Shown one piece after another: positions 11,352 to 30,751 of a stretch of DNA of 64,000 nucleotides; position 1 is the stretch's first letter; each line of letters opens with the position of its first letter. Origin of the DNA: Sporomusa termitida (GTDB taxonomy: Bacteria; Bacillota; Negativicutes; Sporomusales; Sporomusaceae); assembly GCF_007641255.1 (NCBI RefSeq), contig NZ_CP036259.1, positions 744,001 through 808,000 of the forward strand, given 5' to 3'. The notes beneath the pieces are model-generated. The model was not told the origin of the DNA. It saw nothing but the letters and a program-made list of their open reading frames with translations, and ran no database searches. A program made the position numbers and the translations under genes.

Positions 11352-12178
11352 AGATAAGGCAATATCTGCTTTCTTCAATCATACGGCTGCTGCAGGCAGG
11401 TCAGAACTCCAGGCGTACCTGGTAACGGGAGACAGGCAGCCCGTTTTTTTCCCTAGTCGGTTGCATAATTTACAGTCTATGGGTTAATATAAGAAAGCTC
11501 TGACGTGCTCGACACACGTCAGACCGGCAAGTTGTCTAGCCGAACGGTTAGCCCGGATCAAAGGCTATAAGAAATAACCGCAATTCCTGAAGTGAACCCC
11601 TTTTATTATACCAGTAAATTCCAGACTCAACAATATACGGGGACATTTGTTAGATATTTGGGGACGCCAGACTGTGCGAAAGCAGTCTGACGTCCCTGTT
11701 GTCCTCTGCTATCAAAAATAAGAAAGCCATGCCGGTATTCCGCCTGGGAAGGCCCGGCCAGCCATCCAGTATCCAGCCTTGGGACTGAAGTGGTAACGCC
11801 AGGTCTAAGCGCAGGCAGGAAGGGCAGTGGGCCGAAAGCGCACGCTGAAGATGCAGAAGGCAACTGAAGACAAAACACTTCATAAAAGTCTATTGCAGAA
11901 CCGTATCACACTGGCCACGGCAAAAAATATAAACCTCCTGTCAGAGCTCGTGTAGCTCTGACAGGAGGTTTATGCCTTTAGCGGTAATGTCGCTTTTTTT
12001 TCTCAATAAACTTGGTGAGCGTTTTATATTTCTTATCTGTACCTATTTAAAATGTAAGTTCTGCCTATTTTAATAGTATCAAAATTGTTTTATAATACAA
12101 ACATGTTTTGCAAAAGGTCTAATAGTGGTGATAGTAAAACTCAAGCTTTAATAAGACGGGAAAGGTGGAAAAAACAGT
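11352..12178. other. Gene-free 0.8-kb interval with several isolated hairpins
   Basis: No convincing coding frame was found; short frames here lack ribosome-binding sites and family resemblance. Three hairpins stand out: CTGACGTG/CACGTCAG near 11500-11520; GGGACG..CAGACTG with CAGTCTG..CGTCCC at 11660-11695; and an 18-bp perfect stem AAACCTCCTGTCAGAGCT with its complement at 11931-11971. TATAAT at 12091-12096 may be the -10 box of the following ECF gene. The segment may hold decayed sequence or small RNAs. Confidence 0.5.
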
Positions 12179-15850: not shown

Positions 15851-15961
15851 CTCTTATCCAGAGAGGTCGAGGGACTGGCCCGATGACACCCGGCAACCGG
15901 CGTATTTACGCAGAGGTGCTAATTCCAGCAGGAATCAGTAGATATTCCTGGGAGATGAGAG
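15851..15961 (+). ncRNA. SAM-I riboswitch (S box)
   Basis: The leader contains the conserved S-box landmarks in order: CTCTTATCCAGAGAGGTCGAG, GGCCCGATGACACC, CGGCAACCGG, GAGGTGCTAATTCCAGC and finally GGGAGATGAGAG, whose end pairs with the opening CTCTTATC to form P1. Such riboswitches bind S-adenosylmethionine and then favour a downstream terminator. It controls the homoserine acetyltransferase gene, but its expression platform is separated from the gene by two inserted 161-nt repeats. Confidence 0.96.
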
Positions 15962-15983
15962 GGATTAGGTATATATTAATATG

Positions 15984-16006
15984 CCCCCTCTAGCGAGGGG
16001 GTTTTC
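15984..16006 (+). terminator. Terminator of the SAM riboswitch
   Basis: CCCCCTC and GAGGGGG with a TAGC loop are followed by TTTTC. It lies 22 nt after the aptamer and is the expected expression platform. Confidence 0.85.
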
Positions 16007-16020
16007 AATTTTTATTACCT

Positions 16021-16181
16021 AGTGCCTTGACAAAGTCAAATGTTAGGTTATACAACGCATCTTTTCCCGCACTGCTTCGTTGTCGTCGCCTTACAGATTG
16101 CCGATCTGCGCGGTTCCTCCGCCTTACATTGCGAAAAAATCTACGTTGTCTAAAACTAACATCTAACTGTGCCAAGGCACT
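16021..16181. repeat. 161-nt palindromic (MITE-like) element, copy 1
   Basis: The element starts AGTGCCTTG and ends CAAGGCACT, and about 38 bp at each end are imperfect inverted repeats (both arms contain ATGTTAG and, farther in, ACAACG when read inward). The interior carries nested hairpins such as CAGAT-TGCCG-ATCTG. It is immediately followed by a second copy with about five differences. There is no coding frame with a start signal. The structure resembles a non-autonomous transposable element or a mobile RNA-fold element. Confidence 0.85.
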
Positions 16182-16342
16182 AGTACCTTGACAAAGTCAA
16201 ATGTTAGGTTATACAACGCATCTTTTCCCGCACTGCTTCGTTGTCGTCACCTTACAGATTGCCGATCTGCGCGGTTCCTCCGCCTTGCATTGCGAAAAAA
16301 TCTACGTTGTCTAAACCTAACATCTAACTGTGCCAAGGTACT
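16182..16342. repeat. 161-nt palindromic (MITE-like) element, copy 2
   Basis: This direct tandem copy begins AGTACCTTG and ends CAAGGTACT. The first and last differences from copy 1 (G to A near the left end, C to T near the right end) are compensatory, so the terminal base pair is kept. It ends 30 nt before the metX start, so RNA polymerase released from the SAM terminator must cross both folds. Confidence 0.85.
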
Positions 16343-16372
16343 GGTTAAATCATTACAAAGGGGGCTAAGTTC

Positions 16373-17584
16373 ATGGTTGTTACCTTTTTTCCCGGTTTTA
16401 GATGGCGGTCACAGCTCAAGCTGGCCCAAATTGCCAGCCCGGAAGATCCTTTTACCCTGGAGCAGGGCGGTTGTTTAACCGAGATAACGGTGGCGTATGA
16501 AACCTATGGTACACTGTCTGCGGCCGGTGACAATGTCATCCTGGTGGCGCATGCGCTGACCGGTGACAGCCACCCGGCGGCCCACGGGCCCTATGATGAG
16601 CAAGGCTGGTGGGAACCGTTAATCGGTCCCGGGCGGACGCTTGACACCGACCGGTTTTATGTTATTTGCGCCAATGTGCTCGGCGGCTGCCAGGGGACAA
16701 CAGGTCCCGCTTCGCCTGATCCGGCTACCGGCCGGGCCTATGGCATGGGTTTTCCGGAGATAACCGTTAAAGATATGGTAAAGGTCCAGAAACGGCTGTT
16801 GGAAGTGCTGCGGATTCAGCACCTGGCGCTGGTCATTGGCGGTTCGATGGGCGGGATGCAGGCGCTGGAATGGGCGGTAAGCTATCCGGGTTTTATTGAT
16901 GCCGTTGTTGTGATTGCCGCCCCAGGCTATGCAGCCCCTCAGGCCATTGCCTACAATCGGGTGGGCCGCCAGGCGGTTATGCTTGATCCCGCCTGGCAAA
17001 ACGGTAATTATTATGGCGGGCCTGGCCCGGAGAAAGGCCTGGCGGCGGCCCGGGCCCTGGGCATGATTACCTATCAGAGCGAGTTGTCTATGGCCTATAA
17101 GTTTGGCCGGCGCACACGGAGCGGACAGTTTGAAGTGGAAAACTATTTAGACTACCAGGGCGCGAATATCGTTAAACGCTTTGATGCCAATTCCTATCTC
17201 TATCTGTTGCGGGCCCTGGATCTTTTCGATATAAGCGCCGGTTACGCAACGTATGAGGATGCTTTGGCCCGCATCGATGCCCGGATGCTGATTGTCGGGG
17301 TCAGTTCCGATATCCTGTACCCGCCGCATCAGCAGGAAGAATTGGCGGCAACCTTGCGCCGGGTGGGCATCCGGGCCGAATTGGCGGTGATTAACAGCCC
17401 GCACGGTCATGACGGATTTCTGATCGATTTTCAATTGCTCAGGCCAATCCTTACCCGCTTTATTGATGCCGCCCTGCCGGCGCCGGTTACTGTGCCGATC
17501 AGGCAATGGTTCCGGTTCCGGGCGTCCAGCCTGGCCTATCTCGGCGCCCGCCTGATGCCGGCGGTAGAGCTCCGGGAGGTGTGA
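16373..17584 (+). CDS. metX: Homoserine O-acetyltransferase
   Basis: The 403-aa alpha/beta-hydrolase enzyme transfers the acetyl group of acetyl-CoA to homoserine, the entry step to methionine by direct sulfhydrylation or transsulfuration. The nucleophile lies in GGSMGGMQALEWA, the catalytic Asp in GVSSDILYPP and the His in NSPHGHDGFLID. AAAGGGGG precedes the ATG. Regulation by SAM is clear from the S-box upstream. Other methionine genes are not adjacent. The leader of over 500 nt is extended by two palindromic repeats, which may add a second layer of control or reduce expression. MetX versus succinyltransferase specificity is not settled by sequence. Confidence 0.94.
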   Translation: MVVTFFPGFRWRSQLKLAQIASPEDPFTLEQGGCLTEITVAYETYGTLSAAGDNVILVAHALTGDSHPAAHGPYDEQGWWEPLIGPGRTLDTDRFYVICANVLGGCQGTTGPASPDPATGRAYGMGFPEITVKDMVKVQKRLLEVLRIQHLALVIGGSMGGMQALEWAVSYPGFIDAVVVIAAPGYAAPQAIAYNRVGRQAVMLDPAWQNGNYYGGPGPEKGLAAARALGMITYQSELSMAYKFGRRTRSGQFEVENYLDYQGANIVKRFDANSYLYLLRALDLFDISAGYATYEDALARIDARMLIVGVSSDILYPPHQQEELAATLRRVGIRAELAVINSPHGHDGFLIDFQLLRPILTRFIDAALPAPVTVPIRQWFRFRASSLAYLGARLMPAVELREV

Positions 17585-29348: not shown

Positions 29349-29377
29349 TAGAGCCACCCCCTTCCATTTGTCTCGCC

Positions 29378-29409
29378 CTAAAACTAAAATCTAACATAAC
29401 CAAGACACT
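29378..29409. repeat. Solo end of the 161-nt palindromic element
   Basis: CTAAAACTAAAATCTAAC followed by CCAAGACACT matches the right end of the elements at 16021-16342 (CTAAAACTAACATCTAAC ... CCAAGGCACT) with a few changes. No left end is visible nearby, so it is a degenerate one-ended remnant. The MFS stop codon (TAG on the minus strand, 29410-29408) uses bases of this end. Confidence 0.6.
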
Positions 29410-30751
29410 ACTGTTTGTCCAAGACCAGGGCGCTCGCTTCTTTTAGGGTTAAGCCCCTTGTTTCCGGCGCCCAGGCCACACAGACCACTAACCCCAGAAA
29501 AGTCAGCAGGGTGCTGAGCAGCATGGTAGTGCTTATGCCCAGGGTTTGTAAAGAATAGGGCAGGGCAAAAGTGCCAATGGCGGCGCCGATCCGGCTGATG
29601 GCAGTCACTACGCCGACGGCCGAGGCGCGGATGCTGGTGGGAAACAGCTCGTTGGGATAGATCCAGTCAAGGGCACTGGGCGGGCCGGAGAAAAAGGCAT
29701 AGACAGCAAAGCCGCAGAAGATCAGCCAGGCCGGGGCTCCGGGCGCTATCCCTAAGACGAACATGGCCAGGGTCATAAAGCTAAAGCTCCAGATGATGAG
29801 GGGACGCCGGCCAAAGCAGTTAACAAGATAGATTGACGCTAGCGTCCCGGTGAGAAAAAATATGTTGATGACGGCATAGCCGATGATCCAGTCATTGCCG
29901 CTGCCCAGACGGAAGGCCGCTAAAATTTGCGGGGCAAAGGTATAAATGGCAAAACACGGCGCTACCTGGAAGGTCCAGAATAAGCCCACAAACAGGGTTT
30001 TTTTGAGATAATCCGGTTCCAGCAGTTTGCGGAGCCGGGTTTTCTCCGTTGCCCCCTCATCCAGGTCCTGCAGGCTGGCATGAGGTCCGTATACCTGTTT
30101 AATCACTGCAAGCGCCTCACCGGTTTGTCCCTTGCTGGCAAGCCAGCGGGGCGACTCGGGGGTGCCCCAGCGCCCGCTCACTAGTATAAGGGCAGGGATG
30201 GCAGCGCTCCCCAGCATCCACCGCCAGGCATCAGGGCCTGTCTGTAACAGCAGGTAGCCGGCGATACCGGCGGCAACGGCACCCGCATACCAGGCGCTGG
30301 CCAGCAGTCCCATCATGGCGCCGCGATACCGGCGGGGTGAGAACTCGGCCAGCAAAGCGGTGGCAATCGGATAATCTGCACCAACCGCCAGCCCAATGAG
30401 AAATCTTAGGAAGACTAGTTCTCCGGCTGTAGTAATAAACATTTGCAAAATTGAAAAAATTATAATCCCAATAAGATCAATTTTGTACATAAACTGGCGG
30501 CCGGTCAGGTCGGTCACATAGCCAAAGACTGCGCCCCCCACCAATAAACCGATCAGGGCGGCGGCGCCGATCATCCCTGTCCAGAAGGAGTCCAGCTGAA
30601 GTTCCGGCTGCAGCTGGAGCAGGGCCATACCGATGATTGTCAGGATATAGCCGTCTAAAAAGGGACCGCCGCTGGTATAAACAGCCAGCTTTTTTAAGAA
30701 AGGCGTCAAGGGTGAATCTTCGACGCCGGGCAAGTGAGTAGTTTTTGTCAT
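29408..30751 (-). CDS. MFS transporter (sugar-porter-like family)
   Basis: The 447-aa, 12-helix permease shows signatures of the sugar/organic-acid porter branch: GGPFLDGYILTIIGMAL in helix 1, GYVTDLTGRQFMYKID in loop 2-3, RFLIGLAVGADYPIATAL, PESPRWLASKG after helix 6 and PNELFPTSIRASAVG near helix 10. AAGGAGG precedes the ATG. A near-perfect sigma-54 promoter lies 42 nt upstream, which ties it to the adjacent PAS-AAA-Fis activator and to the methylamine-type operon on the other side. It may carry a methylated substrate or a demethylation product. Its stop codon comes from a repeat remnant. Confidence 0.9.
   Translation of the reverse strand: MTKTTHLPGVEDSPLTPFLKKLAVYTSGGPFLDGYILTIIGMALLQLQPELQLDSFWTGMIGAAALIGLLVGGAVFGYVTDLTGRQFMYKIDLIGIIIFSILQMFITTAGELVFLRFLIGLAVGADYPIATALLAEFSPRRYRGAMMGLLASAWYAGAVAAGIAGYLLLQTGPDAWRWMLGSAAIPALILVSGRWGTPESPRWLASKGQTGEALAVIKQVYGPHASLQDLDEGATEKTRLRKLLEPDYLKKTLFVGLFWTFQVAPCFAIYTFAPQILAAFRLGSGNDWIIGYAVINIFFLTGTLASIYLVNCFGRRPLIIWSFSFMTLAMFVLGIAPGAPAWLIFCGFAVYAFFSGPPSALDWIYPNELFPTSIRASAVGVVTAISRIGAAIGTFALPYSLQTLGISTTMLLSTLLTFLGLVVCVAWAPETRGLTLKEASALVLDKQ

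What the first reader, a model, noticed from the sequence alone, without database searches (positions are those of the whole stretch)
16021..16342. Tandem 161-nt palindromic elements inserted between a SAM riboswitch and metX, with compensatory terminal changes
Two direct copies (16021-16181, 16182-16342) lie between the S-box terminator and metX. Each has imperfect ~38-bp inverted ends. Between the copies the outermost differences pair up (AGTGCC...GGCACT against AGTACC...GGTACT), so the fold is preserved. Tandem palindromes in a riboswitch leader could pause or stop transcription after the riboswitch decision, or add promoter or RNase sites. The family is not one I recognise.
Basis: seen in the sequence. 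Interest (0 to 1): 0.68.

Follow-up and report, generated by a model that had tools for sequence, protein, structure and literature searches.

The report
Widespread mobile hairpin with conserved core
Two back-to-back copies of a small jumping DNA hairpin sit in front of the metX gene of a Sporomusa bacterium; the same kind of element, with nearly the same unusual core, occurs in many copies across Bacillota, in Actinomycetota and probably in Acidobacteriota, and I found no earlier description of it.

Summary
Two 161-nt copies (97% identical) lie between the S-box terminator and metX, and their outermost difference is a compensated base pair. The interpretation needs changing. The element is not part of the riboswitch: orthologous metX leaders in relatives lack it, and one keeps a bare CTAG at the site. 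About 40 copies are dispersed in this genome. The strand that folds best is the minus strand, antisense to metX. The anatomy is a TA/CTAG-flanked hairpin of about 160 nt. Its outer arms fall into at least six sequence groups only 42-57% alike, yet each pairs with its own partner. Its core, GGCGGAGGA ... GACGACAACGA, is nearly constant and folds as single G-C pairs separated by G-A-type mismatches. Covariation over 48 diverse copies is very strong. All 25 carrier genomes tested (Bacillota, Actinomycetota, Acidobacteriota) have 2 to 85 model hits. No Rfam family, internal gene or conserved neighbouring gene was found. Best reading: a MITE spread by IS630/Tc1-type transposases acting on exchangeable ends, carrying an undescribed structured core that probably acts as RNA. 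The core's function is inferred, not shown.

The parts
16021..16181 (-). Element copy 1 (arm group A); the structured strand is the minus strand
   Evidence: model R1 hit 16055-16145, 72.9 bits
16182..16342 (-). Element copy 2 (arm group A), tandem with copy 1
   Evidence: model R1 hit 16216-16306, 83.5 bits
16115..16123 (-). Core strand 1 of copy 1, GGCGGAGGA
16077..16087 (-). Core strand 2 of copy 1, GACGACAACGA
16276..16284 (-). Core strand 1 of copy 2, GGCGGAGGA
16238..16248 (-). Core strand 2 of copy 2, GACGACAACGA
16019..16022 (.). CTAG at the outer edge of copy 1 (proposed TA target site)
   Evidence: read; TA/CTAG ends across the family
16180..16183 (.). CTAG at the junction of the two copies (proposed target of the second insertion)
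   Evidence: read
16341..16344 (.). CTGG at the outer edge of copy 2 (CTAG with one change)
   Evidence: read
15851..15961 (+). SAM riboswitch (S-box) aptamer; context, not part of the element
15983..16002 (+). S-box terminator hairpin followed by T-rich tail; context
16373..17584 (+). metX-like gene (homoserine O-acetyltransferase, named from its sequence and S-box context); context
   Evidence: ORF

Best explanation
The pair is two tandem insertions of a non-autonomous mobile element (MITE). Step 1 (inferred, supported): a trans-acting IS630/Tc1-type DDE transposase recognises the outer arms as terminal inverted repeats and inserts the unit at TA, preferably within CTAG; the second copy inserted at the CTAG on the edge of the first. 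Step 2 (shown): the arms differ completely between subfamilies and lineages, while an inner core is kept across phyla. Step 3 (shown as conservation and covariation): the minus (S) strand folds into a long hairpin whose inner part is a non-canonical helix in which single G-C pairs alternate with 2x2 mismatches, two of them tandem G-A, capped by a variable but paired hairpin. Step 4 (inferred): this core acts as a single-stranded structure, most likely as RNA when neighbouring genes are transcribed through it, as a binding or processing site that makes insertions tolerable or stabilises transcripts. At metX the element is antisense and downstream of the riboswitch decision, and is probably a tolerated insertion.
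For: Dispersed copies in the own genome and patchy presence in relatives; 2-85 model hits in each of 25 carrier genomes of several phyla. TA at both symmetrical ends in 80 of 100 elements, most often CTAG, the IS630 target (PMC2170065). The own genome's single DDE_3 element has ends CTAGTGACTYGCCAAAGTT, close to CTAGTGCCTTGGCACAGTT of these copies; IS630 elements in other carriers begin CTAGTGC. Metx leaders of relatives lack the element and G006 reads CTAG at the site. Six arm groups pair only with their own partners. Covariation score 0.681 against 0.199 shuffled and at most 0.203 slid. S strand the more stable in 43/43 and 49/56 copies, with 294 against 113 and 225 against 137 G-U pairs. 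None lay inside an ORF; no conserved neighbouring gene.
Against: Ten of 14 carrier genomes searched have no DDE_3 transposase, and the own copy looks broken, so the mobiliser may be something else or extinct. Target duplication is read from one orthologous site with imperfect flank similarity. No transcription data; the S-strand signal fits folded single-stranded DNA as well as RNA. Sense orientation relative to genes is not significant (35 against 22, p 0.11).
Confidence: 0.72

Rival explanations
1. The core is recognised as a folded single DNA strand (hairpin or cruciform) by an unknown recombinase or endonuclease, so the element moves through single-stranded DNA and the arms need only pair with each other.
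For: Pairing of the arms is conserved but their sequence is not, the opposite of what a transposase binding fixed ends would select; S-strand bias; the S strand folds well with DNA parameters (z -10.3); many carriers lack a DDE_3 transposase.
Against: Constant TA/CTAG ends fit IS630-type insertion; the same group-A arms also carry a different core (core II), so arms move without this core; no conserved partner gene near the elements.
Confidence: 0.15
2. It is an ordinary MITE whose palindromy arises by template-switch correction during replication; the core is only an ancestral remnant without function.
For: MITEs are typically long hairpins; some genomes hold many near-identical copies, i.e. 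recent bursts.
Against: Arms and capping hairpin have run through many pair types while the two core strands stay nearly constant, also in model-found copies that were not selected for the exact motif. Template-switch correction would give Watson-Crick palindromes, not strand-biased G-U pairs and conserved G-A mismatches.
Confidence: 0.08
3. One reading: the tandem palindromes are a regulatory part of the metX leader that pauses or stops transcription after the riboswitch decision.
For: They lie in the leader, and the plus strand also folds (z -4.7 for the whole leader).
Against: Same element at dozens of unrelated sites; absent from orthologous metX leaders; structured strand is antisense; no terminator-like tail.
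Confidence: 0.05

Closest known systems
RUP (repeat unit of pneumococcus), a MITE thought to be mobilised by IS630-Spn1
   Same: Short, intergenic, many copies, inverted ends, TA target, ends resembling an IS630 element of the same genome (PMC2229807).
   Different: RUP is 107 bp in one species; this family is about 160 nt, spans phyla, has exchangeable arms and a conserved G-A-rich core.
ERIC repeats of enterobacteria
   Same: 127-bp imperfect palindrome, TA at the ends, intergenic, folds as a long hairpin, orientation-dependent effect on mRNA (PMC2229807).
   Different: No detectable sequence similarity: none of 20,395 E. coli records matches; host groups differ.
bcr1 repeats of the Bacillus cereus group
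   Same: MITE-like intergenic repeat of similar size, partly transcribed within UTRs and operons (PMC3446304).
   Different: Described as specific to the B. cereus group; sequences were not compared here.
IStrons (group I intron carried by an insertion sequence)
   Same: A structured RNA domain carried by a DNA transposon (PMC4227781, abstract only).
   Different: No intron or ribozyme match in the element; much shorter; no evidence of splicing.
REP/BIME palindromes with RAYT transposases
   Same: Intergenic palindromic repeats with many copies.
   Different: REPs are 20-40 bp (PMC3733652 abstract); this unit is 160 nt with TA-flanked inverted ends.

Membership tests
MITE (general) | Short (about 100-200 bp), non-coding, many dispersed copies | tested here: met
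   161 nt; none of the elements classified lay inside an ORF; dozens of copies
MITE (general) | Terminal inverted repeats | tested here: met
MITE (general) | Target-site duplication shown against an empty site | tested here: inconclusive
   TA at both ends in 80 of 100; one orthologous site (G006) reads CTAG without the element, with diverged flanks
IS630-derived MITE (RUP-like) | Ends similar to an IS630 element of the same genome | tested here: inconclusive
   Similar in the own genome for arm group A; other arm groups unmatched; 10 of 14 carriers lack DDE_3
IS630-derived MITE (RUP-like) | Mobilised in trans by an IS630 transposase | not testable with these tools
   needs a transposition assay
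ERIC | Sequence similarity to the enterobacterial repeat | tested here: not met
   no blastn match in 20,395 E. coli records
bcr1 repeats | Sequence similarity and group-specific target duplication | not tested
   no bcr1 sequence was compared; only papers were read
REP/BIME | Unit of 20-40 bp | tested here: not met
   unit is 161 nt
Known structured RNA family (Rfam 15) | Match to a covariance model | tested here: not met
   none at gathering score; at E up to 5 only a plant microRNA hairpin far below its threshold
SAM riboswitch leader component | Present in orthologous metX leaders | tested here: not met
   absent in G001, G004 and G006 by inspection, and G003 and G008 have no copy anywhere

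The most novel reading that the evidence does not exclude
A previously undescribed, cross-phylum class of mobile structured nucleic acid: a non-canonical G-A-rich helix, functional as RNA or as folded single-stranded DNA, that has been carried by many unrelated sets of transposon ends and is kept by selection for its own activity on the host or on a transposase.
Probability: 0.4. Interest if true: 0.82.

Novelty: new variant of a known kind. Interest (0 to 1): 0.6.

Why it matters
In the MITE families described in the papers read here, the ends are the recognised part. In this family the ends vary while an inner helix is nearly invariant from Bacillota to Actinomycetota, which points to a shared, strand-specific function carried by a jumping element of 160 nt. 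With tens of copies per genome it could affect transcripts of many genes. The family has no Rfam entry and was not found in the papers searched; one covariance model finds it, and the core is a direct handle for identifying a binding partner.

Tried and rejected
(1) Riboswitch expression platform: rejected, see the first-reader verdict. (2) Known RNA family: no Rfam match. (3) Plasmid or phage origin: no match among plasmids or phages; of 22 viral-contig pattern hits only 4 have paired arms. (4) Autonomous partner in cis: inverted pairs of elements 1-2 kb apart (L309-L311) enclose no recognisable transposase; all-against-all comparison of neighbouring ORFs gave only ABC ATPases, response regulators and similar common families. 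(5) Gene orientation bias: 35 sense to 22 antisense, p 0.11. (6) Pattern hits in high-GC genomes: many are chance matches without paired arms and were left out of the alignment. (7) A text search for the core letters gave only papers on unrelated subjects, judged by title and abstract; further literature searches found no description. (8) Centring genome searches on other phyla failed because loci are not accepted as centres; carrier genomes were searched by handle instead.

Full report
WHAT IS THERE. The window comes from a 5.3-Mb genome that is most likely a Sporomusa species: a same-genus relative, G005, carries a copy whose flanks look identical to those in a record titled Sporomusa acidovorans. 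Between the S-box terminator (15983-16002) and metX (16373) lie two tandem 161-nt copies that differ at 5 positions; the outermost differences, positions 4 and 158, pair with each other. The minus strand, here called S, folds much better than the plus strand (-72.9 against -49.4 kcal/mol for copy 1).

DISPERSED REPEAT. A blast search of the own genome gives 54 matching segments. The covariance model built here gives 46 hits: about 30 at or above 40 bits, the rest mostly long forms with an insert, plus a few weak 112-nt hits that are probably false. Relatives carry from 0 to 25 blast matches each. No element lay inside an ORF among those classified. The metX leaders of G001, G004 and G006, read directly, have no element, and G003 and G008 have no copy in the genome at all. 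G006 reads CTAG at the place. In the window the sites are CTAG, CTAG and CTGG (16019, 16180, 16341), which fits one insertion at a CTAG, a second at the CTAG on the edge of the first, and one later base change. That reading is inference.

ENDS. Of 100 elements with recognisable inverted ends, 80 have TA at both symmetrical ends, most often within CTAG. That is the target signature of the IS630/Tc1 family (PMC2170065 and the Tenzen papers in its reference list). The own genome holds one DDE_3 transposase, apparently broken into several frames, in a 1.17-kb element with ends CTAGTGACTYGCCAAAGTT, close to the end of the present copies, CTAGTGCCTTGGCACAGTT. IS630 elements in other carrier genomes also begin CTAGTGC, but 10 of 14 carrier genomes have no DDE_3 match. 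The transposase link is therefore the best guess, not a demonstration.

ARMS AND CORE. Within this genome at least six arm groups (A-F) are only 42-57% identical to one another, yet each left arm pairs with its own right arm (-42 to -49 kcal/mol) and far less with those of other groups (-6 to -27). After removal of hits without paired arms, 48 diverse copies gave alignment A1. Covariation is very strong: score 0.681 against 0.199 in shuffles and at most 0.203 when partners are slid; 88.9% of cells paired against at most 50.1% slid. The core strands GGCGGAGGA and GACGACAACGA are predicted to form G-C, (GC/AA), G-C, (GA/GA), G-C, (GA/GA), then a covarying pair leading into a variable hairpin. 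Because the genome-wide pattern selected these two motifs, their invariance in A1 is partly by construction. Model-found copies that were not pattern-selected still keep GGCGGAGGA and GACGACAACG in most cases, usually ending in C rather than A. The S strand is the more stable one in 43 of 43 and 49 of 56 copies and holds the excess of G-U pairs, so constraint acts on one strand. That argues for RNA or folded single-stranded DNA rather than symmetry of the double strand, and against template-switch correction alone.

DISTRIBUTION. In 199 genomes drawn from the phylum, 11 including the own one carry the element (10 of 157 genera; strict filters). All 25 carrier genomes examined have several hits, 2 to 85 each; they were chosen because they held a pattern hit. 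They include Ruminococcus, Lachnospiraceae and Oscillospiraceae MAGs, Ruminiclostridium hungatei, Pelosinus propionicus, Microtetraspora and two Acidobacteria MAGs. Counts in very GC-rich genomes may be inflated; the Streptomyces record, for one, has a pattern hit without paired arms. Microtetraspora (paired arms, CTAG on both sides, 25 hits) is the best actinobacterial case. The acidobacterial cases rest on MAGs.

HOW IT MOST LIKELY WORKS. Mobility: non-autonomous, by a TA-inserting DDE transposase acting on the arms (supported, not shown). Core: a structured site acting in single-stranded form, most likely in read-through transcripts (inferred). ERIC repeats are a precedent: their RNA fold affects mRNA stability in an orientation-dependent way (PMC2229807). 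At metX the structured strand is antisense, so the metX transcript carries the weaker fold; an effect is possible, but nothing indicates that the element belongs to the riboswitch.

COMPARISON. General MITE features are met, except that the target duplication was judged at one orthologous site only and stays inconclusive. It works like RUP and ERIC but is not shown to be a member of either: ERIC similarity was tested and not met, the RUP-type link to IS630 is inconclusive, and bcr1 was not compared. Rfam has no match. The literature library gave no description of this core; absence from that library is not proof of novelty.

LIMITS. There are no expression data. The genome could only be searched, not read whole. 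Taxonomic breadth rests partly on MAGs. The model was trained partly on pattern-selected copies. The two chief uncertainties are the mobiliser and whether the core acts as RNA or DNA.

Noticed in passing
own-genome copies such as L006, L007, L017, L059 (G000:C1:1650247, 534592, 4452861, 1899862): A ~69-71-nt insert (CGCTAACTGATTC...CACGGG) sits at one fixed place in the core, after GGCGGAGGA, in about 20 copies from several arm groups; among 31 genomes searched it occurs only here apart from one fragment in G028.
   Followed up: partly
L017, L019, L027, L028, L069, L072, L319: Chimeric copies join the left arm of one group to the right arm of another, so the outer arms no longer pair; 6 of these 7 carry the insert (6 of 17 insert copies against 1 of 28 without, Fisher p 0.008). 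Unexplained; recombination between copies is likely.
   Followed up: partly
L218, L216, L217, L070 (G000:C1:2472637, 4131575, 3257220, 569728): A second repeat of about 165 nt has the group-A ends but a different inner core (GGGCGAGACAAAATGGTAAAGG...CCATTTTGGCC); roughly two dozen copies here and some in G009, G014 and G019.
   Followed up: partly
window 29362-29410: A lone arm relic of the second repeat (82% match) lies in the intergenic gap between a ORF ending at 29357 and a transporter-like ORF starting at 29408, both on the minus strand.
   Followed up: partly
window 11735-11902: Group II intron D1-D4-6 match (50.8 bits, gathering score 49) in an intergenic stretch; not examined for the rest of an intron.
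   Followed up: no
G000:C1:1755685-1756859 (L213): The only IS630-type (DDE_3) insertion sequence found in the genome appears split into several frames, so a present-day mobiliser may be missing.
   Followed up: partly
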